Assembly: GCA_934378195.1 (NCBI GenBank)
Contig: CAKRPO010000022.1
Coordinates: forward strand, 1-35,454
Source of the DNA: an uncultured Blautia sp.
GTDB lineage: Bacteria > Bacillota > Clostridia > Lachnospirales > Lachnospiraceae
DNA length: 35,454 bases
Direction: 5' to 3'
Part shown: one piece after another, positions 7,295-31,417 of the stretch
Position numbering within the stretch: position 1 is the first letter of the stretch
Layout of the letters: every line of letters starts with the position of its first letter
Notes under the pieces: model-generated
Databases searched by the model: none
The model's input: only the letters and a program-made list of their open reading frames with translations
What the model was told of the DNA's origin: nothing
Program-made: the position numbers and the translations under genes

Positions 7295-7372
7295 GATACA
7301 GACAGATAAGATCTGACTCAGACTGCACATGCTAGATGCATAGTTCAACCCAACCCATAGAATGACAAAATA

Positions 7373-7416
7373 CCGGGATATCTTCTCCATATGAGAGAGA
7401 AGAATCCCGGCATTTT
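7373..7416 (+). terminator. Intrinsic terminator after the DUF1002 gene
   Basis: CCGGGAT with TCTTCTC (from 7373) pairs with GAGAAGA and ATCCCGG (to 7410) with a one-base bulge, followed by six T. Confidence 0.8.
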
Positions 7417-7461
7417 TTATGCAATATTATTCATACGAAAATCTTCCGACCTGAAACACCA

Positions 7462-12260: not shown

Positions 12261-13898
12261 ATGGGAAAGGTATGCAAAAAGTCATGGATCGTTGCCATTT
12301 TCTTAGGAGTAATGCTTTTTGCAGCGGGCTTTGCATTTCAGTCAACGACTGTAGATACACAGGCTGCCACGACAGGATTCCGGACAATAAGCGGAAAGAC
12401 CTACTATTATAAGAATGGAAAGCCGGTAAAAGGCTGGCTGACCCTTAATGGAAAGAAATACTGCTTTAATACGAAAACCGGAGTCATGCTGAAAGGCTGG
12501 AAGGGCGGCTTCAACGTAAGACGTTATTTTAATCCGACTTCAGGCGTTATGTATACCGGCATGAAAAAAGTAGGCGGTAAGTATTACTATTTTGATCTCA
12601 GGACAGGATGTGCCAGGACTGGATTTGTCAGAGGTGGCGGCGGCAAGGTTGTCCGCTATTTCAGCACGACAGATCACACAATGGTAAAAGGCTGGATGCA
12701 GAATGACAAGAAACAGAAATGGTATTTTTCCAGCAATGGAAAAATGTTAATGGGACTGAATAAAGTAGGAGGCCGTTATTACTATTTTAATCCCAGTTCC
12801 GGTGTTATGACCAAGGGTTTTGTAACGACCAACAATGAAACAAGATATTTTTCTTCTTCCGGAGCTATGGTTACCGGCTGGACGAAGTCCGCACAGGGAA
12901 AGAGAAGATATTTTGACGGCAATGGTGTTATGTATAAAGGAATCAAGAAGGTAGGGAGCGCAACATACTATTTCAACACCAGTACAGGTATCGCTACTGG
13001 CGGCTGGGCAACATCCGGCGGAAACAAATATTATTTTGATACAAGTACACTGAAGATGATTTCAAATACATCCAGAACGATTGATGGAAAAATCTGTACG
13101 TTCAATTCATCTGGTGTTTTGACAAGCTCCAAACCGGTAAATTCCAATTCCAACAGTGCAAATCCTGCTTATTTTGCGGGTGATCCGAAACCGGCAGCAC
13201 AGACAGGTACAAGAACAATCAAGAATTTCCTTGCAGGTGCATTGAAACCAGTTGGCCAGGCGCTTTATATGTGGGGCGGCGGACATGGTTACGATGATTC
13301 TGTAAGACTTGGAGTAAGTTCCAAGTGGCAGAGTTTTTATCTCAGCCAGAGCAGCAGTTATAATTATAGAAACTACAATGATTTAAGTGCTGCAAATGAG
13401 GCAAAAGGTCTGGATTGTTCAGGATTTGTCGGATGGACAACTTATCAGACGCTGCGTAAATACAGTACCTGTGTATCCGGTGAGATTGGAGCCCTGTATA
13501 AAGGCTATGGATGGGGTTCTACTGTAACGCAGAATTATTTATCCAAGACAGGATGGAAGGTGTATCCGGGAGATATCGGTTACGATGGCGGACATACATG
13601 GATCATTCTGGGACAGTGTTCCGATAAGAGTGCGGTAATCGTTCATTCCACACCGAATGCAGGCGTTCAGATTTCCGGTACCTGTACACCTGGTGGTGAT
13701 TATGACAGCCAGGCAGTGGCACTGGCAAACAAATATATGTCCAGATATGCAGGATACAAGAAATATGAATATCGTACATCCTGTGGTAACTATATCCGTC
13801 GAGGAAACTATCTGAGATGGAACAGTACACTGTCCGATCCGGAGAGATTCAAGAGCAAGACCGCGGATGTGATCCTGAAAGAACTGTTTGGATTCTAA
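12261..13898 (+). CDS. Secreted cell-wall-binding repeat protein with NlpC/P60-like peptidase domain
   Basis: The 545-residue protein begins with a signal peptide (KKSW then a hydrophobic stretch, cleavage near residue 35). Residues about 38-290 contain roughly a dozen aromatic repeats of the choline/glucan-binding (CW_binding) type, seen as alternating GW-x-YYF and TGMKKVGGKYYYF units. After a Ser/Asn linker, a C-terminal NlpC/P60-like domain (about 315-520) has a likely catalytic Cys386 in GLDCSGFVGW, His445 in GGHTWI and His462 in IVHSTPN. Such enzymes cut peptide stems of peptidoglycan, while the repeats hold them on wall polymers. It is longer and less regular than standard P60 domains. 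Own promoter and terminator. Confidence 0.85.
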   Translation: MGKVCKKSWIVAIFLGVMLFAAGFAFQSTTVDTQAATTGFRTISGKTYYYKNGKPVKGWLTLNGKKYCFNTKTGVMLKGWKGGFNVRRYFNPTSGVMYTGMKKVGGKYYYFDLRTGCARTGFVRGGGGKVVRYFSTTDHTMVKGWMQNDKKQKWYFSSNGKMLMGLNKVGGRYYYFNPSSGVMTKGFVTTNNETRYFSSSGAMVTGWTKSAQGKRRYFDGNGVMYKGIKKVGSATYYFNTSTGIATGGWATSGGNKYYFDTSTLKMISNTSRTIDGKICTFNSSGVLTSSKPVNSNSNSANPAYFAGDPKPAAQTGTRTIKNFLAGALKPVGQALYMWGGGHGYDDSVRLGVSSKWQSFYLSQSSSYNYRNYNDLSAANEAKGLDCSGFVGWTTYQTLRKYSTCVSGEIGALYKGYGWGSTVTQNYLSKTGWKVYPGDIGYDGGHTWIILGQCSDKSAVIVHSTPNAGVQISGTCTPGGDYDSQAVALANKYMSRYAGYKKYEYRTSCGNYIRRGNYLRWNSTLSDPERFKSKTADVILKELFGF

Positions 13899-18251: not shown

Positions 18252-18319
18252 TTGGAAGATAGTATTTTTGTGCCATGAAGTTTTGTATATAAAAAATACA
18301 ATCTGCAAAAAAACATTTC

Positions 18320-18348
18320 TGGACATGGGAAAAAATGTAATATATTAT
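18320..18348 (+). promoter_or_regulatory. Promoter upstream of the cobalamin riboswitch
   Basis: TGGACA (18320-18325), 17 bases, TATTAT (18343-18348). Transcription would start just before the riboswitch. Confidence 0.7.
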
Positions 18349-18377
18349 AAAGTTGTAAATAAATAACATTTGTTGGT

Positions 18378-18600
18378 TTTGAACCAGCCTTTGTGAGTTC
18401 CTGTGCGATACTTTGCATATGGATTAAAAGGGAAACCGGTGTAAATCCGGTACGATCCCGTCACTGTGATAGGGAGTTGCAGAACATAATATCCACTGGA
18501 CAGACAGCAGTCAGTCTGGGAAGGAGTTCTGGAGCGAGGATCTTAAGTCAGGAGACCTGCTTACAAATGATAAGATATGATTCTTACGGTAGATAGGAAG
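18378..18600 (+). promoter_or_regulatory. Cobalamin (B12) riboswitch
   Basis: The conserved core is plain: GGGAAACCGGTGTAAATCCG at 18430-18449, CCGTCACTGTGATAGGGAG at 18458-18476, CCACTG near 18493, TGGGAAGG near 18518 and the B12 box AGTCAGGAGACCTGC at 18546-18560. Aptamer ends are approximate. A transcription terminator lies about 20 bases after the aptamer, so binding of adenosyl- or methylcobalamin should favour termination. Such switches control B12 synthesis, cobalt or corrinoid uptake, or B12-independent isoenzymes. Here the downstream genes are a broken permease and aldolase and then yiaK, which is not a normal B12 target set. Confidence 0.95.
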
Positions 18601-18618
18601 CATTGTTTTTTTGTGTGC

Positions 18619-18654
18619 AAACGTCCGTACTATTTTGTTTACGGATGTTTTTTT
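18619..18654 (+). terminator. Riboswitch expression-platform terminator
   Basis: ACGTCCGTA (18621-18629) pairs with TACGGATGT (18640-18648), followed by seven T. From 18655 to 18795 no convincing gene or site was seen apart from the Shine-Dalgarno GGAAGGAG (18783-18790). Confidence 0.85.
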
Positions 18655-18795
18655 CTGCACTTTTTTGCGTCGTATATCGAGGACGCGAATTTCCCCCTTG
18701 CCATTTTTACAATTGAATCAGATCTGGTTAAAATCGCTGATACTGTGAACGAAGTGAACAGTGACAAAACCTCTATAATGTAGGAAGGAGAAACA

Positions 18796-18948
18796 ATGTC
18801 AAAAAAACAATTTGGAAAAAGGCTCCTGCAGATTCTGATTGTTCTGATCGGTGTAAGTTTCTTTACCTTTGGACTTACCTATTGCAGTTTCCGTACTGAC
18901 ACCAATGTTTGTATCCCAGACACAGGACGAACTGTACGCATACTATAA
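18796..18948 (+). pseudogene. 5' fragment of a peptide/nickel-type ABC permease gene, truncated at a fusion junction
   Basis: A strong Shine-Dalgarno (GGAAGGAG) precedes ATG 18796. The first 29 codons read MSKKQFGKRLLQ and ILIVLIGVSFFTFGLTY, the typical first cytoplasmic stretch and membrane helix of DppB/NikB-type permeases, which normally continue to about 310 residues with a PGDP-like motif right after this helix. Here homology stops at about base 18882. The frame then runs through shifted aldolase sequence (CSFRTDTN) to a stop at 18946-18948. The remaining product would be a 50-residue single-helix peptide. Its place behind a B12 riboswitch suggests the original operon imported cobalt, nickel or a corrinoid; that is an inference. 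Confidence 0.7.
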
Positions 18949-19471
18949 AGAAATTGCAGAGAGTACATCACTTCCGATCATTCTTTATAACAATAAGCCG
19001 AAGACAAACGTAACCATCACACCGGCTACTGTTGCAAGACTGGCTGAAATTGACAATATCGTTGCAGTAAAGGACAGCACCGGTGATATGACAAATGCAG
19101 CAGAGTATATTCGTCTGACAAGAGATAATGATAATTTCCACGTACTGATGGGAAGAGATACTCTGATTCATGCAGCTCTTTGCTATGGTGCAACAGGTGC
19201 AATCGCATCCTGTGCGAATGTAGCTCCACGTATTGCTGCTGACATTTATGATAAATACATGGAAGGTGATCTCAAAGGATCTCTGGACGCACAGTTTAAA
19301 CTGGCTCCGCTCCGTATTGCATGCGGTATGGGTACTTTCCCGGCTGTTATCAAAGAAGGACTTGTACAGGAGGGAATTCCGGTAGGAAAATGCCTGTCTC
19401 CAATCGGCGAGCTGACACCGGAAGAGAAAGAAAAACTTCACAAAGTTCTGGTTGACATGGGACTGGTTTAA
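18883..19471 (+). pseudogene. 3' two thirds of a DapA/NanA-family aldolase gene
   Basis: From about 18884 the frame reads AVSVLTPMFVSQTQDELYAY and continues to a normal family C-terminus. The Tyr of ILYNNKP and the Schiff-base Lys of VAVKDSTGD are present. About 196 of the usual 300 residues remain. The first 100 or so, with strands 1-4 of the barrel and the substrate-binding GTTGE segment, are missing. No Shine-Dalgarno or own start is visible: the only in-frame upstream start is a TTG at 18869 that lies in permease sequence, one base out of the permease frame. DapA-family members include dihydrodipicolinate synthase, N-acetylneuraminate lyase and sugar-acid aldolases. The following YiaK-type gene favours a sugar-acid role before truncation. 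Confidence 0.78.
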
Positions 19472-19538
19472 TGTAAAATAAGTACTGTTTACAGATACGA
19501 TAAATATCTCCCACAAAATAAAAAGGCAGGAATGTGCG

Positions 19539-20546
19539 ATGCGAATTTTCTACGAAGAAATGAAAGAAAAGTTACAGAGCATTCTTGTGAAAAATGGTTT
19601 CGATGAGAAACGTGCAGAGGAATCGGCGAAGAATTTTGCCGATTCTTCTTTGGATGGAGTATATTCTCATGGCTACCAGCGTTTTCCAAGAGTGATCGAA
19701 TATATCAAAAAAGGCTACATTGATGTCGATGCAGTGCCGGAAAAAATCACCGGATTCGGCGCAGTGGAACGTTGGGACGGACATCTTGGAATGGGAAATC
19801 TCAATGCAAAGATGGCGATGGACAGAAGTATTGAGCTGGCCAAAGAACATGGAATCGGTATGGTTGCAATGTCCAATACTAATCACTGGATGCGTGGCGG
19901 TGCTTATGGCTGGCAGGCTGCAGAAGCAGGCTGCATCGGTATCTGCTGGACAAATACCTGCCCGAATATGCCGGCCTGGGGTGCTGTGGATGGCAGGATC
20001 GGAAACAATCCATTCGTTCTGGCAGTACCGGATCAGAATGGAAATCACGTAGTTGTTGATACGGCGATGGCACAGTATTCTTACGGCAAGCTTTCTGTAT
20101 GCAGACAGAACGGCGAACAGCTTCCATATCCGGGTGGTTACGATGAGGAAGGCAATCTGACCTGTGATCCGGCTGCTATTGAGAAGACACGAAGAGTCGT
20201 TCCGATCGGTTACTGGAAAGGATCAGGTCTTTCAATCGTTCTGGATCTGATCGGTGGTATGCTGACCCTTGGCAGGACCGTGACAAAAGTAGGAAAAGAA
20301 TGCGAGTCCGAATATGGTCTGACACAGGTATTTATTGTAATCCGTCCGGAAGTTCTGAATCAGGATCCAGAAAAAGCACAGAAAATACTGGAAGAGACGC
20401 TGAAAGATATCCAGGATTCTGTACCGGAAAAAGAGGGACGCGCCGTTCGCTATCCGGGGCAGGGAACGCTGCTTCGCCGACAGCAGAATATCAAAAACGG
20501 AATTCCGGTCAATGAGGAAATATGGAAAAAGATATGTGAATTATAA
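19539..20546 (+). CDS. yiaK: YiaK-type 2,3-diketo-L-gulonate/3-dehydro-L-gulonate dehydrogenase (Ldh2/malate-LDH family)
   Basis: The 335-residue protein belongs to the LDH2/MDH2 family of NAD(P)-dependent oxidoreductases, distinct from classical lactate dehydrogenases. Family marks are DGVYSHGYQRFPRVI near residue 39 with the catalytic-site His, NTNHWMRGGAYGW near residue 113, VVDTAMAQYSYGKL near residue 168 and GYWKGSGLSIVLDLIGGML near residue 225. YiaK of E. coli reduces 2,3-diketo-L-gulonate in ascorbate or related sugar-acid use; the motif set fits this branch well. AGGCAGGA precedes the ATG. It follows the aldolase fragment by 67 bases and may now depend on the B12-riboswitch promoter. 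It is intact with its own terminator. Confidence 0.85.
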   Translation: MRIFYEEMKEKLQSILVKNGFDEKRAEESAKNFADSSLDGVYSHGYQRFPRVIEYIKKGYIDVDAVPEKITGFGAVERWDGHLGMGNLNAKMAMDRSIELAKEHGIGMVAMSNTNHWMRGGAYGWQAAEAGCIGICWTNTCPNMPAWGAVDGRIGNNPFVLAVPDQNGNHVVVDTAMAQYSYGKLSVCRQNGEQLPYPGGYDEEGNLTCDPAAIEKTRRVVPIGYWKGSGLSIVLDLIGGMLTLGRTVTKVGKECESEYGLTQVFIVIRPEVLNQDPEKAQKILEETLKDIQDSVPEKEGRAVRYPGQGTLLRRQQNIKNGIPVNEEIWKKICEL

Positions 20547-20557
20547 AAATATAAATA

Positions 20558-20606: not shown

Positions 20607-21641
20607 TTATTGTGCCAGTTTTGTAGTTTCGCGGTTGATTAGAATAGGAGGTATTATTTTGTGTACTGGTTCAGAAGAAAGTTCTGGTTTTCTTTTGTGA
20701 CGATCTGTAATCTGAGCATTCAGGATTTCAACGGCGGTAACAGCAATTTTCTCAATTTGCTGTCCAACGGTACTGATTGGGACGATTGCCTCTCTTGAAA
20801 CCGGAGAATCATCGAAACCTATGAGTTTATAATCATCAGGCAGAGAACCGTATTTTTGAATAAGGTGATTGAGCATGATATTGGCAAAGGTGTCGTTTGG
20901 GAGGAAAATTCCCTTGACTTTATCCGGGTATTTTCTGTCAATATCCTCGAGAAGTTCCCTGAGGATGCGAGATGTTTCTTCATAGGTATGACCAGTATCC
21001 GTAAGAATCAGTTCGTGAGGAAGCTGATATTCTTTACAGATATCTGAAAAACCTCTGATACGTCCATAAGAAGGAACCTGCGGTGAAAGGTCTGCATTAA
21101 TATGAATAAGTACGTCAGCTCCTGTTTTGACAAGAAGACTGGTGGCCTGAATTCCACCCATATAGTTATCGGTATTGACGCTGCTGACATATTGATCTTC
21201 ACGTTCGATCGTAACGATCGGGATAGGGTAGTTGGCAAGTTCACGTGAAGGGATTGTGTGGCTGAGAATGATCATTCCTTCAATTTTATAGGCAAGGAGC
21301 TCCTGGATATAATTTCGTTCAGTTGTTTCGTGATCATCCCCTGTAAAAACGAGAAATTTGTATCCGTAGGTTTCATAGGTCTTTAGTATTTGACTCAGAA
21401 TTTCTGAATAATAATGTAGATAAAGGTTTGGGATAATAACCCCGATAAATTCTGTCTTTCCGTTTGCGAGAATCCTCGCAACTTTATTTTCTTTATAGTT
21501 TAATTTCTCAAGAGCATCTGCGATGATCTGCTGATTTTCCAGGGTAAGGGAGTCCGGATTATTGAAATATCTGGAAACAGTTGTTTTGGAAAAACCAGTA
21601 TATTTTGCAATATCATTGAAGGTTATATTCTTTTTCCCCAT
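20607..21641 (-). CDS. LacI-family transcriptional regulator of the beta-fructoside locus
   Basis: The 344-residue protein has a LacI-type helix-turn-helix at residues 6-30 (TFNDIAKYTGFSKTTVSRYF, with the hinge helix at LNYKENKVARILAN) and a C-terminal periplasmic-binding-like effector domain starting EFIGVIIPNLYLHYYSEIL, with late motifs FLPNDTFANIMLNHL and LIGFDDSPVSREAI. It is transcribed away from the sugar ABC operon, and palindromic operators with a central CG, typical for LacI proteins, lie between them. It most likely represses the operon until a sugar such as sucrose, fructose or its phosphate binds. The effector is inferred only from the GH32 gene. The gene converges on yiaK across a shared terminator. 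Confidence 0.9.
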   Translation of the reverse strand: MGKKNITFNDIAKYTGFSKTTVSRYFNNPDSLTLENQQIIADALEKLNYKENKVARILANGKTEFIGVIIPNLYLHYYSEILSQILKTYETYGYKFLVFTGDDHETTERNYIQELLAYKIEGMIILSHTIPSRELANYPIPIVTIEREDQYVSSVNTDNYMGGIQATSLLVKTGADVLIHINADLSPQVPSYGRIRGFSDICKEYQLPHELILTDTGHTYEETSRILRELLEDIDRKYPDKVKGIFLPNDTFANIMLNHLIQKYGSLPDDYKLIGFDDSPVSREAIVPISTVGQQIEKIAVTAVEILNAQITDRHKRKPELSSEPVHKIIPPILINRETTKLAQ

Positions 21642-21711
21642 ATGAAAGTCCTTTCAATAAAAAAATTTATAAAATTTAAATATCTTCGATATTTGTAAGC
21701 TATCTAAAAGA

Positions 21712-21717
21712 AGTATA
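21712..21717 (-). promoter_or_regulatory. Probable -10 of the LacI-type gene
   Basis: On the minus strand TATACT lies 70 bases before the ATG. The -35 (TTGTTC, plus coordinates 21735-21740) is weak. Operator site 1 lies just upstream of it. Confidence 0.45.
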
Positions 21718-21766
21718 ACAGAAAATCAGAAACAGAACAAGGATAACCAGTAACAGAATTGGTTAA

Positions 21767-21778
21767 GTAACCGGTTAT
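21767..21778. promoter_or_regulatory. LacI-type operator, site 1
   Basis: GTAACCGGTTAT matches the perfect palindrome at 21881 in 11 of 12 bases. It lies upstream of the -35 regions of both divergent promoters, 114 bases from site 2. Confidence 0.65.
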
Positions 21779-21840
21779 GTAAAATATTAACAAATTAAAA
21801 AGAAAGAATTTGTATATATCAATGAAAAACAATAGAATAC

Positions 21841-21869
21841 TTGACGAAATGATATTTGGATGGTATTAT
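21841..21869 (+). promoter_or_regulatory. Promoter of the beta-fructoside ABC operon
   Basis: TTGACG (21841-21846), 17 bases, TATTAT (21864-21869). Start of transcription is expected near 21876, right before the double operator. Confidence 0.8.
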
Positions 21870-21880
21870 CAAATCATAAA

Positions 21881-21903
21881 GTAACCGGTTACTTTACCGG
21901 TAA
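21881..21903. promoter_or_regulatory. Double LacI-type operator, sites 2 and 3
   Basis: GTAACCGGTTAC (21881-21892) is a perfect 12-bp palindrome, and TTACCGGTAA (21894-21903) is a perfect 10-bp palindrome one base later. Both lie just downstream of the expected transcription start, where a repressor would block initiation or elongation. Confidence 0.8.
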
Positions 21904-21935
21904 CACAGAGCGAACACAGGGAAAAGGAGGAGCAC

Positions 21936-23258
21936 ATGAAGAAAATAAAACTGATTCTTCTTGCCGGTCTGGCTATGGCAGTCAGTCTTACCGGTTGTCA
22001 GAAAAAGGAAGTAAAGCCCGGCGATGTAGAAGGATATGATGAAGGAGAACAGTATCTTTCCATATGGGTACACAGTATCGAAGATACTGCAGAAGGACAG
22101 GTCTACAGAGAATGTGTAGACAGCTTTAATGAAAAATATAATGGCAAATATTTTGCAGATATCGAATTTATTCCGAGAAATGACAGCGGTGGCGGTTATT
22201 CGGACAAGGTAAATTCTTCGGTATTATCAGGCGGTCTGCCGGACGTTCTTACTCTGGATGGACCGAATGTGGCGGCTTATGCAGAGAATGGCATCATACA
22301 GCCGCTGGCAGATCTGACAGACGAAGAAAGAGGCGAATATCTGGAATCCATTCTGGATCAGGGTACTTATAACGATAAGCTTTATGCACTCGGAGTTATG
22401 GAATCCAGCGTAGGCCTTTACTATAACAAAGACATCCTTGAAGAAGCCGGAATTGAGGTTCCGGATGCAGACCATCCGTGGACGACATCAGAATTTATGG
22501 ATATTCTGGCTAAGCTGAAACCGCTGATGGATGAGAAGAATGGATATCCGATCGACATGACCTTCCCGGTAGGTGAATCCAGCATTTATTACTATGCCCC
22601 ATTTATCTGGGCAAACGGTGGTGACCTGGTAAGCGAAGACGGCCTGACAGTGGATGGATATTTCAATTCAGAAAAGAATGTTGAAGTTATGAATTATTTC
22701 CACCAGATCGTAGAGAACAAATACATGTCTGAAGCTCCGATCGAGAATCTGTTTGAAAGTGGAAGAGCAGCCTTCAAATTTGACGGTGCGTGGGAAGTAA
22801 ACACAATTTACGAGAACTATCCGGATGTAAACCTTGGCGTTGCACCTTATGTAGTTGGTGATGACTGGGATGGTGAAAGATATACACCGACAGGCTCCTG
22901 GGCATTTGCAGCATCTTCAGAAACAGACAATATTGAAGGTGCAACAGAGTTGGTCAAATGGATGAGTGGTGTGGAAAGTGGTGTGAGAATCTGGAATGAA
23001 GCAAAATCACTTCCTTCTACATATAAGGCATTTGAACAGATCGATGTATTCCAGACAGATGAAAACTATAATGCGCTTTACCAGCAGTTAAGCAAATACG
23101 GACACCCGAGACCAAAAACTCCTGTATATCCACAGGTAAGTACATCTTTCCAGCAGGCATTAGAGAGTATCGGACTGGGCGGAAAAGATGCACAGACAGA
23201 ACTGGATAAATCTGTAGAAAGGATTAACGCGAAACTGGAACGTTATACGAGAAAATAA
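21936..23258 (+). CDS. Sugar ABC transporter substrate-binding lipoprotein
   Basis: The 440-residue protein has a lipoprotein signal with lipobox SLTGC (Cys21) and a family-1 extracellular sugar-binding fold: LSIWVHSIEDTAEG near the mature start, VNSSVLSGGLPDVLTLDG near residue 90, YALGVMESSVGLYYNKDIL near residue 148, and FKFDGAWEV with PTGSWAFAAS in the second lobe. It should bind a short oligosaccharide outside the membrane. The promoter-proximal place, the operators in front and the GH32 at the end indicate sucrose or fructo-oligosaccharides. GGAGG precedes the ATG. Its stop overlaps the next start as TAATG. Confidence 0.92.
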   Translation: MKKIKLILLAGLAMAVSLTGCQKKEVKPGDVEGYDEGEQYLSIWVHSIEDTAEGQVYRECVDSFNEKYNGKYFADIEFIPRNDSGGGYSDKVNSSVLSGGLPDVLTLDGPNVAAYAENGIIQPLADLTDEERGEYLESILDQGTYNDKLYALGVMESSVGLYYNKDILEEAGIEVPDADHPWTTSEFMDILAKLKPLMDEKNGYPIDMTFPVGESSIYYYAPFIWANGGDLVSEDGLTVDGYFNSEKNVEVMNYFHQIVENKYMSEAPIENLFESGRAAFKFDGAWEVNTIYENYPDVNLGVAPYVVGDDWDGERYTPTGSWAFAASSETDNIEGATELVKWMSGVESGVRIWNEAKSLPSTYKAFEQIDVFQTDENYNALYQQLSKYGHPRPKTPVYPQVSTSFQQALESIGLGGKDAQTELDKSVERINAKLERYTRK

Positions 23259-24157
23259 TGAAGAAAAAAGAATCAATCTTAGGAATGGCTTTCTTTGGCC
23301 CGGCACTGGTACTTCTCACATTGTTTTTATTCCTTCCGATGGTGCTGACACTGGTATTCAGTTTTACAGATTACTTTGCACTGAACCCGGATATGACACA
23401 CTTTGTGGGCCTGGAAAACTACATAAACATATTTAAAGACGAATTATTTGTAAAATCTTTCCTGAACACAGTCAAATTTGTAATCATCATTGTACCGTGT
23501 CAGTGCATCGGAGCACTTGTTCTGGCACTTGCGATCAACAAAGTCACACATTGTAAAAAATATTTCAAAGTTGCATTTTTTATTCCGGTTGTAATGTCGC
23601 TGGCAGTTGTATCAACACTCTGGATGGATATCTACAGCCCGGAAGGAATTTTAAATACATTACTTGCACATTTTGGAATCAGCGCGCAGCCGTTTATCCA
23701 CAGCGCAAAACAGGCACTTCCGTCTATCGCGGTCATGAGTGTATGGCAGGGTGTCGGATATCAGATGATCATTTTCCTTGGTGGACTTCAGAATATTAAT
23801 CCGGCGCTTTATGAAGCAGCTGAGATGGATCATGCAAGTGCATGGCAGAAATTCAAAGATATCACACTTCCGGAACTGAAACCACTTTGTGTATTTGTAT
23901 TTATTACCGTTACGATCGGTGCATTCCGAATGCTGGTACAGCCGATGGTCATGACCGGTGGTGGCCCGGATCACTCAACCTACACACTTGTATATGATAT
24001 TTATGAGACCGGTACAATGAACTGGGAGATGGGACTTGCATCTACAATGGCAATCGTATTTACAATATTTGTCGTCATACTGACGATCATACAGAATGTA
24101 CTGACCAAAGGAAAGGAGGAGAAAAAACATGTTAACAAAAAAGCAAAAAACATTTAA
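23258..24157 (+). CDS. Sugar ABC transporter permease, MalF/UgpA type
   Basis: This 299-residue membrane protein has the usual six helices of sugar-importer permeases and the EAA loop LYEAAEMDHASAWQKFKDITLP near residue 190, which docks on the ATPase. The first helix follows directly after a short basic N-terminus. It forms the heterodimeric channel with the next gene product. The start codon shares its first base with the binding-protein stop, and the end overlaps the next gene by 29 bases, so translation of the three proteins is coupled. Confidence 0.93.
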   Translation: MKKKESILGMAFFGPALVLLTLFLFLPMVLTLVFSFTDYFALNPDMTHFVGLENYINIFKDELFVKSFLNTVKFVIIIVPCQCIGALVLALAINKVTHCKKYFKVAFFIPVVMSLAVVSTLWMDIYSPEGILNTLLAHFGISAQPFIHSAKQALPSIAVMSVWQGVGYQMIIFLGGLQNINPALYEAAEMDHASAWQKFKDITLPELKPLCVFVFITVTIGAFRMLVQPMVMTGGGPDHSTYTLVYDIYETGTMNWEMGLASTMAIVFTIFVVILTIIQNVLTKGKEEKKHVNKKAKNI

Positions 24158-24980
24158 CTGGATCCTGGCAGCTTTTCTTCTTGTACTCTCTATATTTTTC
24201 CTGTTTCCGGTCATCTGGATGCTTGCAAACTCCTTTAAACCAGATGCAGCGATCACAGCAGATATGAATTCCATAGCAGCATTTATTCCGCCTGCTTTAA
24301 ATGGGAATTATTTTGAAAACTATATTACGATCCTGACAGATACCAATTTCCTTCGTTATATGCTCAATACGCTTGGATATGCGGCACTGCTGATCGTACT
24401 TGGTGTAATTGTAAACGGACTTGCAGGCTATGCACTTGCAAAGATAAACTTCCCGTTCCGTGACCAGTGGCTTCTGATCATCATGATGCTTCTGATCGTA
24501 CCGACAGAAACAGTTATCACGATACATTTCCTGATCATAGCCAAGGCAGGACTTCTGAATACCGTGATCGGATATGTACTTCCGATGATCGTGAATCCAT
24601 TTAACATCTTCCTGTTCCGACAGGTATTTGTGAGTCTGCCGGATGATGTTTATGAGGCGGCACAGCTTGATTTCTGCAGCCCGGTAAAATATTTCTTTAC
24701 CATGGTACTGCCAATGTCAAAGACAGTCGTTGCAACTGTCAGTGTATTTACATTCCTCGGAGTATGGAATGACTATCTCTGGCCGTCACTTGTATTTACA
24801 TCCAGTGATCTTCTGACCGCACAGATTGGTCTGAACTCCATCACATCCAATGACAATACAACAATGGGACAGACACTTGCAGTAATCACACTGATCACAA
24901 TCCCTGTTATTATTATTTATGCACTGTTTTCCAAACAGATCGTAGAAGGCGTAACTTCAACTGGTTCCAAGGAGGGTTAA
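24129..24980 (+). CDS. Sugar ABC transporter permease, MalG/UgpE type
   Basis: The 283-residue second permease subunit has about six helices and a conserved EAA loop (VYEAAQLDFCSPVKYFFTMVLP near residue 178). The ATG at 24129 is supported by AAGGAGG at 24112-24118 and by the usual LTKKQKTFNWILAAFLL start. The gene begins inside the end of the first permease gene. Together they form the membrane pore for the sugar bound by the upstream lipoprotein. The ATPase gene follows after 6 bases. Confidence 0.93.
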   Translation: MLTKKQKTFNWILAAFLLVLSIFFLFPVIWMLANSFKPDAAITADMNSIAAFIPPALNGNYFENYITILTDTNFLRYMLNTLGYAALLIVLGVIVNGLAGYALAKINFPFRDQWLLIIMMLLIVPTETVITIHFLIIAKAGLLNTVIGYVLPMIVNPFNIFLFRQVFVSLPDDVYEAAQLDFCSPVKYFFTMVLPMSKTVVATVSVFTFLGVWNDYLWPSLVFTSSDLLTAQIGLNSITSNDNTTMGQTLAVITLITIPVIIIYALFSKQIVEGVTSTGSKEG

Positions 24981-24986
24981 TCAATT

Positions 24987-26081
24987 ATGAGTTTTATCGA
25001 ATTTAAACATATCGGAAAAAAATATGCAGGAGTAGAACATAAATCTGTAGACGATTTTAATCTTAATATAGAAGAAAAAGAATTTATCGCATTTGTAGGA
25101 CCGTCCGGTTGTGGCAAATCCACGACACTTCGTATGATCGCTGGATTCGAAGAGATTACAGAAGGAGATCTCTACATTGACGGTAAAAGAGTGAACGAGA
25201 CGGCACCGAGAGACCGTGGTATTGCGATGGTATTCCAGAACTATGCCCTGTATCCGCATATGACCGTAGAAAAAAATATCGGATATGGTCTGAAGAACAT
25301 GAAGATGCCGGCAGACCAGATTAAGAAAAAAGTAGACTGGGCAATTGACATTCTGGGACTGCAGGAATTTCGTTACAGAAAACCGAAGAACCTTTCTGGT
25401 GGCCAGAGACAGCGAGTGGCACTGGGACGTGCAATCGTAAAGAATCAGAAGGTATTTCTGATGGATGAGCCATTGTCCAATCTGGATGCAAAGCTTCGTG
25501 TCAGCATGAGAACTGAGATCAGCAAGCTGCATCGTGAAATGGGCGCAACAACGATCTATGTTACACATGACCAGGTCGAGGCCATGACCATGGCAGATCG
25601 TATTGTCATTATGAAAGAAGGCGTGATCCAGCAGGTTGGAAAACCGATGGAACTCTACGATCATCCGGTAAACAAATTCGTTGCAGGATTTATCGGATCT
25701 CCGCAGATGAACTTCTTTGATGTTACCTTAAAAGGAAATGAAGTTACATTTGAAGACGGAAATAAATTGGTACTTCCGGAAGCTATCCTTAAGAAACTGA
25801 ATGGAAAAGAAGGCGAGATGACACTTGGTATCCGTGGAGAAGATCTCAAAATGGATGCACAGAATCTGGAACTTTATAAAGAAAATAAAATGAAAGCCGT
25901 GATCACAGATACAGAAGTTATGGGAAATGAAAACAACCTGTACTTCCAGTTCGGAGGCTGTCAGGCAGTTGCCAGAGTTTCCAAATACGAGATCAGTCAG
26001 GTGGGGGATGAGATTGAGTTTGTATTTATGCCATCCAAGATCCATTTCTTTGATAAAGAAACTGAGATGAACTATTTATAG
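24987..26081 (+). CDS. Sugar ABC transporter ATP-binding protein, MsmK/UgpC type
   Basis: The 364-residue ATPase has Walker A GPSGCGKST (residues 38-46), Q-loop VFQNYALYPHM (82-92), signature LSGGQRQR (136-143), Walker B FLMDEP (157-162) and switch VTHDQVEAMTMAD. A C-terminal regulatory OB/TOBE region (about 235-364) follows, as in MalK and MsmK; it contains LGIRGEDL. It couples ATP hydrolysis to sugar import. Unlike many Clostridia, where one MsmK gene elsewhere serves several importers, this operon carries its own ATPase. The start follows GGAGG by about 8 bases. Confidence 0.94.
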   Translation: MSFIEFKHIGKKYAGVEHKSVDDFNLNIEEKEFIAFVGPSGCGKSTTLRMIAGFEEITEGDLYIDGKRVNETAPRDRGIAMVFQNYALYPHMTVEKNIGYGLKNMKMPADQIKKKVDWAIDILGLQEFRYRKPKNLSGGQRQRVALGRAIVKNQKVFLMDEPLSNLDAKLRVSMRTEISKLHREMGATTIYVTHDQVEAMTMADRIVIMKEGVIQQVGKPMELYDHPVNKFVAGFIGSPQMNFFDVTLKGNEVTFEDGNKLVLPEAILKKLNGKEGEMTLGIRGEDLKMDAQNLELYKENKMKAVITDTEVMGNENNLYFQFGGCQAVARVSKYEISQVGDEIEFVFMPSKIHFFDKETEMNYL

Positions 26082-26095
26082 GAGAAACGTTGCCA

Positions 26096-26332
26096 ATGAA
26101 AGAAGTAAAGATTTTTTTAGGAACAATAGAAAGAGTAAAAGATTTTGTCAATGCTGTGACACGTCTGGACTGTGATGTGGATATTGTTTCCGGAAGATAT
26201 GTGATTGACGCGAAATCAATCATGGGAATATTCAGTGTGGATCTGTCCAAAGCGGTTGATCTGAGAATTCATGCAGAGGGCAAAGAAGCAGAAAAAGCAA
26301 TGGAAGTAATTCGTCCATTTTTAGAAAAATAA
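26096..26332 (+). CDS. HPr-like protein lacking the active-site histidine (Crh-like)
   Basis: The 78-residue protein aligns over its full length with HPr, the phosphocarrier of the sugar phosphotransferase system. The regulatory-serine segment AKSIMGIFS (Ser41, matching Ser46 of B. subtilis HPr) is conserved. The active-site segment IHARPA is absent: the position of His15 is Thr10 and that of Arg17 is Glu12. It therefore should not carry phosphate from enzyme I, but could be phosphorylated by HPr kinase on the serine and act with CcpA, as Crh does. The ATG at 26096 is preferred to a TTG at 26090 because GGAGAA lies about 9 bases upstream. It sits between the ATPase and the GH32 hydrolase. Confidence 0.82.
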   Translation: MKEVKIFLGTIERVKDFVNAVTRLDCDVDIVSGRYVIDAKSIMGIFSVDLSKAVDLRIHAEGKEAEKAMEVIRPFLEK

Positions 26333-26347
26333 GAAAGTGAGCAGAAT

Positions 26348-27652
26348 ATGCAGAAAATATATGTAAAACCGAAAGACTACTGGATAAATGACCCGAATGG
26401 CTTTATATATTACAAAGGCATGTATCATCTGTTTTACCAGTGCTTCCCGTATGGGCCGCGCTGGGGACGGATGCACTGGGGACATGTTGTCAGCAAAGAT
26501 CTGGTGAACTGGGAGGAACAGGGAATTGCACTGTTTCCGAGCAAAACGGATGATCGGAGCGGATGTTTTTCCGGAAGCGCGATTGAAAAAGATGGTAAAA
26601 TGCAGCTGTATTATACAGGTGTAAATTATCTTACAGAAAATCCGGAGGATATCAATTTATGTGTGGATGAACATTTTGTATCTGCACAGCTGATGATCAC
26701 TTCTGAGGATGGTATTCATTTTGACAATATCAGAGACAAAAAGACGGTGATCCCAGTCATTCATGATGCATCCATCGGAGATGCACGTCACACAAGAGAT
26801 CCGAAAGTCTGGAAAGACGGGGACAGATGGTACATGGTACTTGGAAGTACCATCAATGATAAACAGGGAAAACTTCTGTTCTTCACAAGTACAGATGGAG
26901 AAGAATGGAAATTTGAAAATTCTGTAACCAGAGAAAACTTCGGCTGGATGTGGGAATGCCCGGATTATTTTGAAGTGGATAACAGCCAGGTAGTGATCTT
27001 TTCACCGATGCAGTTGTTTAAAGATGGTAAGGCAGACGATGCACAGACAGTATGCATGCAGGTAACATTTGATAAAGAAACCTGTGATGTGAAACTGCCG
27101 GAAAAATACCAGTTCCTTGATTATGGAACAGACCTTTATGCACCGCAGAGCACTCTGGATGAGAGTGGCAGAAGAATCCTGACAGCATGGCTCCGCATGC
27201 CGGAGCCGGTAGAGGGAAAATGGCAGGGAATGATGTGTATTCCGCGTGTTGTGGAAGTAAAAGAAAATCATATTTATTTCCGCGTTCATCCGAATATTCA
27301 GGCGGCATATACAAGAGCAATTGCTGTACCGTCTGAAGCTGATGAAAGTGGATATCGTCTGAGCTTTTCTCTGAAGGATGGGGATAAAGTAAATATCGGT
27401 GGATATGTGATTTCCAGAGAGGGCAATAAAATCTGTACAGACAGAAGCAGGCTGTTTGAAAGATTCCCTGATCACAGAGTGAAATTTGAGACACCGGAGC
27501 TGAAAGACGGGTTCGAGATTGAGGCATATGTGAACCCGAACCAGATCAGTGTTTTTGTAAACAATGGTGAAGCGGTGATCACCAATGCTGTGTATGGCCT
27601 AAGTGAAGAAATAGAGACAGATGTAAAAGTGAAAATAGAAACTATAGAATAA
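26348..27652 (+). CDS. Glycoside hydrolase family 32 beta-fructosidase (intracellular)
   Basis: The 434-residue enzyme carries all three GH32 active-site motifs: WINDPNG with nucleophile Asp15, RDP with Asp151, and WECPDYF with acid/base Glu203. Residues 1-290 or so form the five-bladed propeller and the rest a shortened beta-sandwich. No signal peptide is present, so it acts in the cytoplasm on sugar delivered by the ABC importer, releasing fructose from sucrose or fructo-oligosaccharides. Because uptake is by ABC and not by a phosphotransferase, the substrate is probably not phosphorylated, although sucrose-6-phosphate hydrolases have similar motifs. It ends the operon before a strong terminator. 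Confidence 0.94.
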   Translation: MQKIYVKPKDYWINDPNGFIYYKGMYHLFYQCFPYGPRWGRMHWGHVVSKDLVNWEEQGIALFPSKTDDRSGCFSGSAIEKDGKMQLYYTGVNYLTENPEDINLCVDEHFVSAQLMITSEDGIHFDNIRDKKTVIPVIHDASIGDARHTRDPKVWKDGDRWYMVLGSTINDKQGKLLFFTSTDGEEWKFENSVTRENFGWMWECPDYFEVDNSQVVIFSPMQLFKDGKADDAQTVCMQVTFDKETCDVKLPEKYQFLDYGTDLYAPQSTLDESGRRILTAWLRMPEPVEGKWQGMMCIPRVVEVKENHIYFRVHPNIQAAYTRAIAVPSEADESGYRLSFSLKDGDKVNIGGYVISREGNKICTDRSRLFERFPDHRVKFETPELKDGFEIEAYVNPNQISVFVNNGEAVITNAVYGLSEEIETDVKVKIETIE

Positions 27653-27763: not shown

Positions 27764-29023
27764 TTATCCAATAATCAAATACAGTATTACAGATATGGTG
27801 GTACTTGTAATACCAACTATCGCTTCAAATGGAATTAGTTTCATACGGTCTTTAATTTCCATTGACACAGAACCGCCTGTTGCATGGAAGAAGGAGCCAT
27901 GAGGAAGAGAGTCTAATACTGTTGAACCAGCATGAATCATTGCTGCTGCACTGAGTGCAGGAACTCCCGCGCCAACTAGAGTGTCTGCAAATGTCTGAGA
28001 TGCGATTGTAGCACCTGAAGTAGTAGATGCCGTTGCTGCTGCCATCAGAATACCGGAAAGAGGTGCCAGAACAAATGTAGGCATATTTAAAAAATCCAGA
28101 AGATGGATCATATCATATTGCAAAGCGGAGGTTTTGATAATACCTGCAAGGGTTCCGGTTCCAATTAGAAGGATGGAAACACCGACAACTTTGCTCAATC
28201 CAAATTCAGTAATGGAAATGATTTCTTTTGATTTTCCCGTTACAATAATGCTGACCAGACCACCTACCGGCAGTGCAATGAGTGGATCAATGGAAATTCC
28301 ACACAGAGGTCTTAATGCAAGGAGAATGATGACTGTAAGAGGTCCGCAGATTGCAGGAATGAATCCTGGAAGTTCTTTCTTTTCTCCTGATACCAGACCT
28401 GCAAAATTTTCAGATTCATTTTTGTGTGAAAGAATTCCTGCAAGAATCACAGTGACAATCAGTGCACAAAGTGCGGGAATGATATTTTTGACCATCAGCG
28501 AAGTCAGATTAACGTGAAAAGCTTCGGAGGCAGCGATGGTATTCGGGTTGGGAGAGATAATATTTCCGGCTTTTCCGCCACCAATCATGGCAAGGAGAAT
28601 ACCACTTTTGGAAAGGTTTGCTTTCTGTCCGATGGCAATAGCGATTGGTGCAACTGTAATGACAGAGATATCTACAAACACACCTACAGAACAGATGATC
28701 ATAGTTGCAATGGAAATTGCAGCAACTGCACGCTGCTTTCCTAATTTTGATACAATTGTGTCGGCTATTTTTTCAGCGGAGCCAGTCTTGATAAGTGCTC
28801 CTGCAAGAATACCGGATGTTAGGATTCGCAGAATAGAAGACATCATGCCCTGTGCGCCGGAAATCATAGTATCTACGGTAGTAGCGAGATCACCGCCACC
28901 AATGATTCCGCCCAGAAGAGCACCGATGATAAGAGAGTATGCCGGATGTACTTTTTTAATAATCAGTATGATTGCAATTACAAGTCCGATGAGGGCACCA
29001 AGCGTTGTAAATTCGTATGTCAT
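27764..29023 (-). CDS. GntP-family permease (probable glycerate or gluconate transporter)
   Basis: This 419-residue, very hydrophobic protein (about 12 helices) belongs to the GntP gluconate/glycerate:proton family. Typical segments are LGGIIGGGDLATTV near residue 37, GGGKAGNIISPNPNTIAASEAF near residue 152 and the late GSTVLDSLPHGSFFHATGG block. The gene lies 21 bases after glycerate kinase on the same strand, so D-glycerate is the most likely substrate, followed by gluconate. GGAG lies about 10 bases before the ATG. A shared bidirectional terminator lies 70 bases downstream. Confidence 0.9.
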   Translation of the reverse strand: MTYEFTTLGALIGLVIAIILIIKKVHPAYSLIIGALLGGIIGGGDLATTVDTMISGAQGMMSSILRILTSGILAGALIKTGSAEKIADTIVSKLGKQRAVAAISIATMIICSVGVFVDISVITVAPIAIAIGQKANLSKSGILLAMIGGGKAGNIISPNPNTIAASEAFHVNLTSLMVKNIIPALCALIVTVILAGILSHKNESENFAGLVSGEKKELPGFIPAICGPLTVIILLALRPLCGISIDPLIALPVGGLVSIIVTGKSKEIISITEFGLSKVVGVSILLIGTGTLAGIIKTSALQYDMIHLLDFLNMPTFVLAPLSGILMAAATASTTSGATIASQTFADTLVGAGVPALSAAAMIHAGSTVLDSLPHGSFFHATGGSVSMEIKDRMKLIPFEAIVGITSTTISVILYLIIG

Positions 29024-29044
29024 AGTATGTTCACTCCTTAGTTA

Positions 29045-30184
29045 TCATTTGATTTCCTGAATCAGGCGGAATACCTGTTCTACAGTAGTTATCATATTTT
29101 TTCTTGCATTTTCCGGATCCATAGCTTCGTTTAAGGTTGTAACTGTGCGAAGGATTGGGAAAAATGCGTCAATACCGTGCTGGTTACAGAGAACGGCATC
29201 TTCTGTAACACATCCGGAAAAAGCCAGTACAGTTTTAGCGTGTTTTTTTGCAATTTCGGCAACACCAATCGGTGCTTTGCCCATGACAGTCTGTCCGTCA
29301 AGTCGTCCTTCCCCGGTGACCACAATATCGGCATCTTTTACATATTCTTCAAGTCTGGTTTCTTCCAGGATAATTTTGATCCCTGATTCAAGAACTGCAT
29401 TTGTATAGGAAAGAAATGCGAATCCCAATCCGCCGGCGGCACCGGTACCTGCCTGTTTCATGTTTGCTTTTGGATATTTTTCCTGTGTGAGTTTGGCATA
29501 ATAGGCCATCCATTTATCCATCTGCATGATCATTGTTGGAGTGGCACCTTTTTGCGGACCGAAAATAGCACTGCATCCCTGTTCTCCGCAAAGGGTATTT
29601 GTTACATCGCATGCAACTTTAAAATGGCAGTCTTTTAATTCAGAAAGTACATGTGTATCTGAAATTTTTTCAATCAGCTGCAAGCCTTTTGCTCCATAAG
29701 GCACCTGTTGTCCATTGATATCCAGAAATTCGTACCCCAGTGCCTGTAACATTCCGATACCACCATCATTTGTTGCACTGCCACCGATACCGATAATAAA
29801 ATTTCGGCATCCTTTGTTGATTGCATCATGAATCAGTTCCCCTACACCAAAAGTGGTTGTATTTAATGGATTTCTGTCTGCTTCTTCTACCAATGTGATT
29901 CCGGCAGCAGCAGACATTTCAATGATTGCGGTGTGCGATTCATCAATAATTCCATATACAGCATCCATAGGTTCACCTAAAGGTCCGGTAACTCTGATTT
30001 TTTCAATTCTACCATTCATGCCCAGAGCCAGAGCTTCTACCGTTCCTTCTCCTCCGTCTGCCAGCGGACGTACAATGACTTCTGCATCATTGCATGCGCG
30101 GTGGATACCTTCTGAAATTGCGGATCCTGCTTCCAGCGAACTTAAACTTCCTTTAAGAGAATCAATTGCTACTACAACTTTCAT
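29045..30184 (-). CDS. glxK: Glycerate 2-kinase (GarK/GlxK type)
   Basis: The 379-residue enzyme matches the GarK/GlxK glycerate kinase family: VVAIDSLKGSLSSLEAG at the N-terminus, GIGGSATNDGGIGMLQALG near residue 115 and GTGAAGGLGFAF near residue 245, with VVTGEGRLDGQT in the last third. It phosphorylates D-glycerate to 2-phosphoglycerate, feeding lower glycolysis. The start at 30184 is chosen because GGAGG lies 8-12 bases upstream, overlapping an alternative in-frame ATG at 30199. It is the first gene of a two-gene operon with the permease, divergent from the CdaR-type regulator. Confidence 0.93.
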   Translation of the reverse strand: MKVVVAIDSLKGSLSSLEAGSAISEGIHRACNDAEVIVRPLADGGEGTVEALALGMNGRIEKIRVTGPLGEPMDAVYGIIDESHTAIIEMSAAAGITLVEEADRNPLNTTTFGVGELIHDAINKGCRNFIIGIGGSATNDGGIGMLQALGYEFLDINGQQVPYGAKGLQLIEKISDTHVLSELKDCHFKVACDVTNTLCGEQGCSAIFGPQKGATPTMIMQMDKWMAYYAKLTQEKYPKANMKQAGTGAAGGLGFAFLSYTNAVLESGIKIILEETRLEEYVKDADIVVTGEGRLDGQTVMGKAPIGVAEIAKKHAKTVLAFSGCVTEDAVLCNQHGIDAFFPILRTVTTLNEAMDPENARKNMITTVEQVFRLIQEIK

Positions 30185-30203
30185 ATGTAAAACCTCCATT
30201 TGT

Positions 30204-30215
30204 AAAAGCGCTTTT
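30204..30215. promoter_or_regulatory. cre-like palindrome in the glxK leader
   Basis: AAAAGCGCTTTT is a perfect 12-bp palindrome preceded by TGT, similar to CcpA cre sites (TGAAAGCGCTTTCA type, 11 of 14 matching). It lies between the glxK promoter and its start codon, where CcpA would act as a block. Confidence 0.5.
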
Positions 30216-30234
30216 TAATTTCTTTGTTGAGCAA

Positions 30235-30243
30235 AGTATATCA
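30235..30243 (-). promoter_or_regulatory. Extended -10 of the glxK-gntP operon
   Basis: On the minus strand TGATATACT fits an extended -10; no good -35 is seen. On the plus strand TAGACA (30252-30257), 16 bases, GATAAT (30274-30279) is a weak candidate promoter for the CdaR-type gene. Confidence 0.45.
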
Positions 30244-30331
30244 GAAAAAATTAGACAGATATATGTTATAAGTGATAATATATAAGAAAAAAACACAATA
30301 AAATTATTTTATATAACAAAAGAGGGGAAAT

Positions 30332-31417
30332 ATGTCAATTCATTTATCAAAAAGAATGGCACAGAAAATTGTTGATACGGTAAAGGATGTATGCGGACAT
30401 GATATTAATTTTATAAATACAGATGGTATTATTTTTGCAAGCACAAATGAAAAACGAATCGGGGAATTTCATGAGATTGGAAAAAAGGTTATAGATACAA
30501 AAGAAATTATAGAAGTGGAAACAGATAACAGTTTCTATGGAACCCAAAAGGGTGTAAACATTCCATTCATTTATAAGCATGAAATTATTGCCGCAATAGG
30601 AATCAGTGGAATTCCGAATGAAGTCAGAAAATATGCAGTGCTTGCACAGAAGATCACCAGCCTTTTGCTGAAAGAACAGGAGCTGGATACTTTGAACTAT
30701 GGCAACAGAAATCAGGAAGACTCTGTAGTTCGGGCTCTGACAGAAAATAAAACGGTTAATCGGGAATTTCTTCAGGAATTTCTGGAAAAAAGAAACCTTG
30801 ATATTAAAGAAGATTACAGAACGTTCATCATCCGGCTGGATTCCAGATACAATTATTCCAATATGGCCATGTTGGAGGGAGAAATCTATAAATTTTTTAA
30901 TCATATTCCATCTGTTATGATTTCTGCAAATTATCTCAGCGATTATCGACTGATGATCAGTGAGAAAGACTTTTGCATCTGGAAAAAACAAATCTTTCAG
31001 TGGGCAGAAAGCTATAAAAAAATTCTCGCGGTGGGAATAGGAAGCAGCGAATCCATACATCGCCAGAATATTTCCTGTTCCCGTGGCGAGATTGCATTGA
31101 AAAGTCTTAGATCCTGGCAAAATATAGCATGTTATGATGACCTTGTACTGGAAATCATTACGAGTTCAATTCCTTCGGAAGTAATGCAGGCCTACAGAGA
31201 AAAAACAATAAATAAGCTGGAACATGAAGATATTGAATTATTGAGACTCTATTTCTCATATGAAATGTCTCTGCAAAAAACTGCTGAAGTTTTGTATGTT
31301 CACAAAAATACTGTTCAGTACCAGTTGAAACGGATCGAGTCTCTAACGGGTTATGATCCGCGTAAATTTACAGACGCGGTAATCTTATATATGGCATTGC
31401 TGAGTCTAAATGGGTGA
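30332..31417 (+). CDS. cdaR: CdaR-type (sugar diacid) transcriptional regulator
   Basis: The 361-residue protein has an N-terminal sugar-diacid recognition domain (about 1-135, with MAQKIVDTVKDVCGHDINFIN and the IPFIYKHEIIAAIGISG segment) and a C-terminal PucR/CdaR helix-turn-helix (about 300-360, SLQKTAEVLYVHKNTVQYQL). E. coli CdaR activates genes for glucarate, galactarate and glycerate use; D-glycerate is a natural inducer. Being divergent from glxK-gntP by 147 bases, it most likely controls that operon. AGAGGGG precedes the ATG. The middle region (about 140-290) is a GGDEF-like degenerate fold in this family, without catalytic residues. Confidence 0.88.
   Translation: MSIHLSKRMAQKIVDTVKDVCGHDINFINTDGIIFASTNEKRIGEFHEIGKKVIDTKEIIEVETDNSFYGTQKGVNIPFIYKHEIIAAIGISGIPNEVRKYAVLAQKITSLLLKEQELDTLNYGNRNQEDSVVRALTENKTVNREFLQEFLEKRNLDIKEDYRTFIIRLDSRYNYSNMAMLEGEIYKFFNHIPSVMISANYLSDYRLMISEKDFCIWKKQIFQWAESYKKILAVGIGSSESIHRQNISCSRGEIALKSLRSWQNIACYDDLVLEIITSSIPSEVMQAYREKTINKLEHEDIELLRLYFSYEMSLQKTAEVLYVHKNTVQYQLKRIESLTGYDPRKFTDAVILYMALLSLNG

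What the first reader, a model, noticed from the sequence alone, without database searches (positions are those of the whole stretch)
18796..19538. Two truncated genes fused out of frame: ABC permease start joined to the last two thirds of a DapA-family aldolase
The first 29 codons after ATG 18796 are a normal DppB/NikB-type permease start. At about 18882 the sequence changes to a DapA/NanA-family aldolase in another frame (from about 18884), missing about 100 N-terminal residues. Both homologies stop at the same point, with no transposon or obvious direct repeat. A single deletion would explain it; a mis-joined assembly would look the same.
Basis: partly seen in the sequence, partly recalled or inferred. 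Interest (0 to 1): 0.72.

Follow-up and report, generated by a model that had tools for sequence, protein, structure and literature searches.

The report
Deletion scar joining two broken genes
A stretch of about 20,000 bases appears to have been lost from a gut Blautia-like bacterium, cutting one gene for a metal importer and one for a sugar-acid enzyme and joining what is left; it looks like a real deletion of a known kind rather than an assembly error, and it removed genes of a pathway linked to gut inflammation.

Summary
Window 18796-18882 is the first 29 codons of a NikB-type ABC permease. From 18883 the sequence is the last 195 of 296 codons of a DapA-family aldolase, in another frame. 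In Blautia sp. MSJ-19 both halves lie on one contig and strand about 20.4 kb apart, and both genes are complete. The missing segment holds the rest of a nickel-type importer operon and a glucarate/galactarate (gud/gar) cluster. The joint is blunt and has no repeat. Misassembly is unlikely: a distinct allele of the same 50-residue chimera heads a protein cluster standing for 8 contigs. The aldolase stump shows no decay, so the deletion looks young. G009 keeps a gud/gar cluster at the same place, without nik genes; G046 has only one gar-type gene there. A cobalamin riboswitch and terminator survive in front of the stumps and an intact dehydrogenase gene; riboswitch control of that gene is possible but unproven. 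Verdict: a natural deletion with an out-of-frame deletion-born fusion, a new member of a known kind.

The parts
18320..18348 (+). promoter-like site upstream of the riboswitch (TGGACA-17-TATTAT)
   Evidence: consensus match only, 10 of 12 (10 such sites found in the region, 5.0 expected)
18378..18578 (+). cobalamin riboswitch aptamer, RF00174
   Evidence: 113.2 bits, full length, gathering score 31.5; also found in 8 of 8 relatives' nikB loci given to (8 of the 10 compared)
18621..18655 (+). intrinsic-terminator-like hairpin plus U-run after the aptamer
   Evidence: fold z = -3.34, 0 of 200 shuffles fold as well; a similar hairpin and T-run are seen by eye in the relatives' leaders; missed by the simple scan, whose loop limit is 8
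18706..18734 (+). promoter-like site after the terminator (TTTACA-17-TAAAAT)
   Evidence: consensus match only, 10 of 12; if real it would bypass the riboswitch
18796..18882 (+). 5' stump (29 codons) of the nikB-type ABC permease gene
   Evidence: 81 of 87 bases identical to MSJ-19 nikB, whose product passes the NCBIfam Opp2B cut-off
18882..18883 (.). deletion joint (about 20.37 kb missing relative to MSJ-19)
18796..18948 (+). 50-aa out-of-frame chimeric ORF made by the joint
   Evidence: cluster representative P0122 is 98% identical over its whole length and stands for 8 contigs
18883..19471 (+). 3' stump of the GudL-like aldolase gene (last 195 of 296 codons), without its own start
   Evidence: Pfam DHDPS; 98% aa identity to MSJ-19
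19452..19479 (+). promoter-like site before the dehydrogenase (TTGACA-16-TAAAAT)
   Evidence: consensus match only, 11 of 12; TAAAAT kept in MSJ-19, not in L002 or L005
19539..20546 (+). intact Ldh_2-family dehydrogenase gene left behind by the deletion
   Evidence: NCBIfam NF009750 453 bits, cut-off 316; Pfam PF02615; 94% aa to MSJ-19

Best explanation
In an ancestor of this Blautia-group strain one deletion of about 20.4 kb joined codon 29 of a riboswitch-controlled nikB permease gene to codon 102 of a gudL-type aldolase gene. Shown: the undeleted layout in a relative, the two intact parent genes, the joint without visible repeats, and the same chimeric peptide in at least one other allele. 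Inferred: the joining was repeat-independent (illegitimate, end-joining-like). The consequence is loss of function: the nickel/cobalt-type importer operon and the gud/gar cluster are gone from this locus, and neither stump is expected to make a working protein. The cobalamin riboswitch, its terminator and the downstream dehydrogenase gene survive. Read-through from the riboswitch promoter when cobalamin is scarce may now reach the dehydrogenase; this last step is inferred, and I give it about one in four.
For:: window 18282-18881 = MSJ-19 C1:294065-294626 and window 18883-20556 = C1:314994-316666, same contig, same strand; nikB (312 codons) and the aldolase (296 codons) are complete there; nikB aligns over at least 310 of 312 residues in eight further genome loci at 82-83%; the aldolase match begins at residue 12 or earlier in 78 of 80 loci; in 10 of 10 permease loci the base after the joint codon is C, and in 10 of 10 aldolase loci the base before the joint is A, while the window has T in both places, so no microhomology is visible. 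P0122. P0016, a 188-aa aldolase starting at the window's first in-frame ATG (18905), which fits the joint but could also be a gene cut at a contig edge; the gud/gar cluster lies at the same chromosomal place in G009.
Against: The window's whole genome is not held, so copies elsewhere cannot be excluded. None of 64 genus genomes (up to 6 candidates scored each) and none of 397 family genomes (2 scored each) shows a match across the joint. P0122's cluster may include the window's own contig among its 8. The nik operon next to the gud/gar cluster was seen in MSJ-19 only; G009 has no nik match at that place. The strain's own parent sequence is unknown, so deletion length and bluntness are read from relatives (MSJ-19 about 11-16% diverged at the flanks).
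Confidence: 0.92

Rival explanations
1. Assembly artefact: two distant stretches were joined by the assembler or by a chimeric molecule.
For: No read data can be seen. No held genome with DNA across the joint was found.
Against: P0122, a distinct allele of the same 50-aa chimera, heads a cluster standing for 8 contigs from two sources, the longest 65.7 kb. P0016 fits the truncated aldolase. No direct match longer than 6 bases lies within 100 bases of the breakpoints. Both halves would have to come by chance from the same strand of one 21 kb region.
Confidence: 0.04
2. Promoter and riboswitch capture is the selected feature: the deletion was kept because it put the Ldh_2 dehydrogenase under cobalamin control.
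For: Riboswitch and terminator look intact. No forward-strand terminator-like site was found between the joint and the dehydrogenase (a scan that also missed the riboswitch terminator). The dehydrogenase frame is intact.
Against: Promoter-like sites lie after the terminator (18706-18734, 10 of 12) and directly before the dehydrogenase (19452-19479, 11 of 12), so the riboswitch may be bypassed. There are no expression data. In MSJ-19 the dehydrogenase gene follows gudL directly, so its partners were probably among the deleted genes.
Confidence: 0.15
3. The truncated aldolase or the 50-aa chimera is a functional small gene.
For: The aldolase stump is open to its normal stop. On the window branch 0 nonsynonymous and 4 synonymous changes could be placed; of 49 differences from MSJ-19, 46 are synonymous.
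Against: Conservation is expected if the deletion is young. 101 residues, among them GTTGE at 46 (its role as a barrel active-site motif is recalled), are gone. I see no ribosome-binding site before TTG 18869 or ATG 18905 (by eye). P0016 has V where the window and the seven relatives compared have A.
Confidence: 0.03
4. MSJ-19 is derived: the nik-gar block was inserted between two pre-existing short fragments.
For: G046 has no such block at this place. G009 has the gud/gar part but no nik genes there.
Against: An insertion would not turn two out-of-frame stumps into two complete conserved genes. Intact parents are widespread.
Confidence: 0.01

Closest known systems
Deletion-born fusions (Kaul et al., bioRxiv 2026, PMC12803068; seen: parts 1 and 2 of 9 and found passages)
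   Same: A multi-kilobase deletion joins the start of one ORF to the end of another. The split state is ancestral. Their mlaE-htpX case also joins in-frame to out-of-frame sequence.
   Different: Here the novel ORF is only 50 codons and a riboswitch leader is kept in front. The words riboswitch, Blautia and Clostridia occur 0 times in the held main text.
gud/gar pathway of commensal Bacillota with the DapA-like aldolase GudL (Nat Commun 2025, PMC11775122; seen: found passages)
   Same: The segment missing here holds, in MSJ-19, galactarate dehydratase, a glucarate-dehydratase-like gene, two tartronate semialdehyde reductases and a DapA-like aldolase. The paper calls the capability strain-specific and names Blautia producta.
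   Different: MSJ-19 has a GntP-type permease in the cluster; the paper's E. clostridioformis uses an ABC transporter, garABC. Here the cluster is lost from the locus.
Cobalamin riboswitch RF00174 upstream of nickel-type ABC importer genes
   Same: Aptamer, terminator-like hairpin and nikB start are kept as in relatives.
   Different: The importer genes are gone; the leader now precedes two stumps and a dehydrogenase gene.

Membership tests
Deletion-born fusion | start of one ORF joined to the end of another by a deletion | tested here: met
Deletion-born fusion | ancestral state is unfused | tested here: met
   intact parents in MSJ-19 and other genomes; gud/gar cluster at the same place in G009; no formal ancestral-state reconstruction was made
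Deletion-born fusion | a novel ORF spans the joint | tested here: met
   50-aa ORF; a 98% identical protein is predicted in other assemblies
Deletion-born fusion | expressed or under selection | not testable with these tools
   no expression data; too few alleles
GudL clade (intact relatives of the stump) | Met at the position called M110 in the paper | tested here: met
   M109 in MSJ-19; 79 of 80 loci have M, one has L. Position mapped by the TPMF motif; the paper's sequence was not held
GudL clade (intact relatives of the stump) | Schiff-base lysine (K167 in the paper) | tested here: met
   K164 in MSJ-19, K in 80 of 80 loci, and kept in the stump
GudL clade (intact relatives of the stump) | Lys at the position called K194 in the paper | tested here: inconclusive
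   the nearest columns read G-R-D at 191-193 in 80 of 80 loci, no Lys; without the paper's sequence the column cannot be fixed
GudL clade (intact relatives of the stump) | neighbours are gar/gud genes | tested here: met
   MSJ-19, G009, L002, L005
Cobalamin riboswitch RF00174 | aptamer above gathering score | tested here: met
   113.2 bits against 31.5
Nickel-type Opp2 ABC importer (intact relative) | permeases above curated cut-off | tested here: met
   Opp2B 392.5 against 350, Opp2C 331.1 against 300
Nickel-type Opp2 ABC importer (intact relative) | NikA-type binding protein above cut-off | tested here: not met
   Opp5A_nikA 310 bits, cut-off 600; the two ATPases also pass none of the cut-offs shown, so the cargo is not settled

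The most novel reading that the evidence does not exclude
The deletion rewired a sugar-acid dehydrogenase gene into a cobalamin-riboswitch regulon: with B12 scarce, transcription passes the terminator, crosses the two stumps and expresses the dehydrogenase. It would be a natural example of riboswitch capture by deletion, carried in a gut lineage that has given up oxidized-sugar catabolism at this locus.
Probability: 0.25. Interest if true: 0.5.

Novelty: new member of a known kind. Interest (0 to 1): 0.33.

Why it matters
It gives a base-level footprint of how a gut commensal lineage lost gud/gar genes. The pathway is reported as strain-specific and linked to gut inflammation (PMC11775122, found passages), and this joint lets carriers of the loss be recognised. 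It also leaves a cobalamin riboswitch in front of unrelated genes, which makes natural riboswitch capture directly testable.

Tried and rejected
Plasmid collection, near mode: no match. Viral contigs, exact joint pattern: 0. No match across the joint in 64 genus genomes or in 397 family genomes drawn from a larger group. Direct repeats at the breakpoints: nothing longer than 6 bases; inverted, 8 bases. Transposon at the joint: none; a PD-(D/E)XK transposase-family gene lies inside the segment that MSJ-19 keeps, not at its ends. Decay of the stump as a clock: no nonsynonymous change could be placed on the window branch, which says only that the deletion looks young. Paper search for riboswitch plus deletion fusions: no title that I judged relevant among the 15 listed of 20,054 (listing only). 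Searches listed 10 of 20 and 10 of 53 papers and gave the two papers used. No claim that something is not in print is made.

Full report
What is there. The first 29 codons after ATG 18796 (to 18882) are a NikB-type ABC permease start, 81 of 87 bases identical to the intact gene of Blautia sp. MSJ-19. From 18883 the sequence is the end of a DapA-family aldolase gene (Pfam DHDPS, profile positions 99-286, E 6e-44), beginning at residue 102 of 296. The frames do not agree: the permease frame continues for 21 codons into a 50-aa ORF ending at 18948, while the aldolase frame runs to 19471.

The relative. The scan of genome contigs gave MSJ-19 as the nearest relative (98% aa on the aldolase part). 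Its genome G001 holds both halves on one contig and one strand: window 18282-18881 at C1:294065-294626 and window 18883-20556 at C1:314994-316666. The interval is about 20.37 kb. By a script that lists ORFs of 100 codons or more it contains the rest of nikB, 14 complete genes and the first 101 codons of the aldolase gene. The 14 are nikC, a family-5 binding protein, two ATPases of nikD/E type, a periplasmic-binding-like protein, a PD-(D/E)XK family gene, two tartronate semialdehyde reductases, a PrpR-like sigma-54 activator, a GltD-like protein, a LysR-like regulator (named by eye, no call), galactarate dehydratase, glucarate dehydratase and a GntP permease. Galactarate dehydratase, both reductases, the GntP permease and the two ABC permeases pass NCBIfam cut-offs. 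Glucarate dehydratase (733 against 828.7), the binding protein (310 against 600) and the two ATPases do not.

Intact parents are common. Among loci at over 60% identity (the only rows printed), nikB aligns over at least 310 of 312 residues in eight further genus genomes at 82-83%; two more loci have it at 60%, and one (L096) aligns in two pieces. For the aldolase, 78 of the 80 kept loci (of 113 found) align from residue 12 or earlier. The two exceptions start at 16 (L010) and at 99 (L054); L054's match begins 24 bases from the end of its contig.

The joint. At the joint codon the window reads TAT|TGC. In 10 of 10 permease loci (MSJ-19 included) the next base is C, and in 10 of 10 aldolase loci the preceding base is A, so no microhomology is visible. 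Within 100 bases of the two breakpoints in MSJ-19 the longest direct match is 6 bases and the longest inverted match 8. This speaks for repeat-independent joining, and against an assembler joining on a shared word.

Not an artefact. A search of about 5.8 billion proteins with the 50-aa chimera returned P0122: 50 aa, 98% identical over the whole length, a cluster of 3 members on 8 contigs, longest 65,702 bases, sources ncbi and ena. It has the same joint residues and one difference, most simply explained by one base that is silent in the aldolase frame and equals the MSJ-19 base (inference). Because the database is clustered at 90%, the window's own contig may be among the 8; the representative itself is not the window's sequence. 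P0016 (188 aa, 8 members) starts at the first in-frame ATG of the stump and differs from the window at 3 residues; it fits the joint but could also be a gene cut at a contig edge. Against this, no match runs across the joint in 64 genus genomes (up to 6 candidates scored each) or 397 family genomes (2 scored each), so no carrier was found among the genomes searched.

Age. Between window and MSJ-19 the stump has 49 differences, 46 of them synonymous. On the window branch 4 synonymous and 0 nonsynonymous changes could be placed with six outgroups, and 39 could not be resolved. The dehydrogenase showed 27 and 11 on the window branch with two outgroups. The stump is undecayed, as expected for a young deletion; the test has little power.

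The leader. A full-length cobalamin riboswitch lies at 18378-18578 (113.2 bits), followed by a hairpin with a U-run at about 18621-18655 (z -3.34). The same layout stands before nikB in relatives (by eye; riboswitch in 8 of 8 loci given, of the 10 compared). After the deletion the leader precedes the two stumps and the intact Ldh_2 dehydrogenase (NF009750, 453 bits, cut-off 316). The simple scan found no forward-strand terminator between joint and dehydrogenase, but it also missed the riboswitch hairpin. It found forward promoter-like sites after that hairpin (18706-18734, 10 of 12) and before the dehydrogenase (19452-19479, 11 of 12), with 10 such sites in the region against 5.0 expected. Whether the dehydrogenase is now under cobalamin control is open.

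The locus. Window and G046 match in the same order in blocks from 325 to 35402. In G046, however, the amino-acid ABC operon is followed after 58 bases by the sugar ABC/GH32 operon; there is no nik or gud block in the 39.8 kb held. One tartronate semialdehyde reductase gene (92% to MSJ-19) lies next to the GGDEF gene, perhaps a leftover. G009 (80% identical over the amino-acid ABC genes) has that operon, then after about 9 kb the gud/gar cluster with an intact aldolase, then cdaR, garK and the same right-hand gene. No nik gene matched in that stretch, so the nik and gud blocks side by side are known from MSJ-19 only. Eight other genus genomes fetched downstream of the operon showed no gud/gar gene in the 4.5-13 kb held; three of them reached a contig end within 7 kb, too short to show a cluster 9 kb away. 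The place looks like a variable metabolic slot.

Known kinds. Kaul et al. (PMC12803068; parts 1 and 2 of 9 and found passages seen) describe deletion-born fusions, including one joined to out-of-frame sequence, and note promoter capture near deletions. PMC11775122 (found passages seen) describes the gud/gar pathway with the DapA-like aldolase GudL and calls it strain-specific. Two of its three residue markers are met in MSJ-19's aldolase; the third could not be placed and no Lys was seen near it. The window case joins these two themes and is a new member of a known kind.

Noticed in passing
20607-27652: A LacI regulator, sugar ABC transporter and GH32 (sucrose/fructan type) operon follows directly; 88.5% identical in G046, with no match above 77% and only short ones in MSJ-19 at length, so the right flank of the scar was also remodelled.
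   Followed up: partly
31475-33370 and 33401-35296: Two adjacent paralogues join a LacI-type sugar-sensing domain to a GGDEF diguanylate cyclase domain; Pfam found no helix-turn-helix in either.
   Followed up: no
27764-31417: GntP-type permease, glycerate kinase and CdaR-type regulator genes; the kinase and regulator are only 64-69% alike in DNA to those beside gudL in L001, L002 and L005 where they matched, so probably of separate origin.
   Followed up: no
7357-7579: A repeat of roughly 140-200 bp with three related copies in the MSJ-19 region (near C1 290.3, 293.9 and 302.5 kb).
   Followed up: no
18730-18765: About 35 extra bases between riboswitch terminator and nikB start compared with MSJ-19.
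   Followed up: no
12261-13898: A protein with choline-binding-type cell wall repeats.
   Followed up: no
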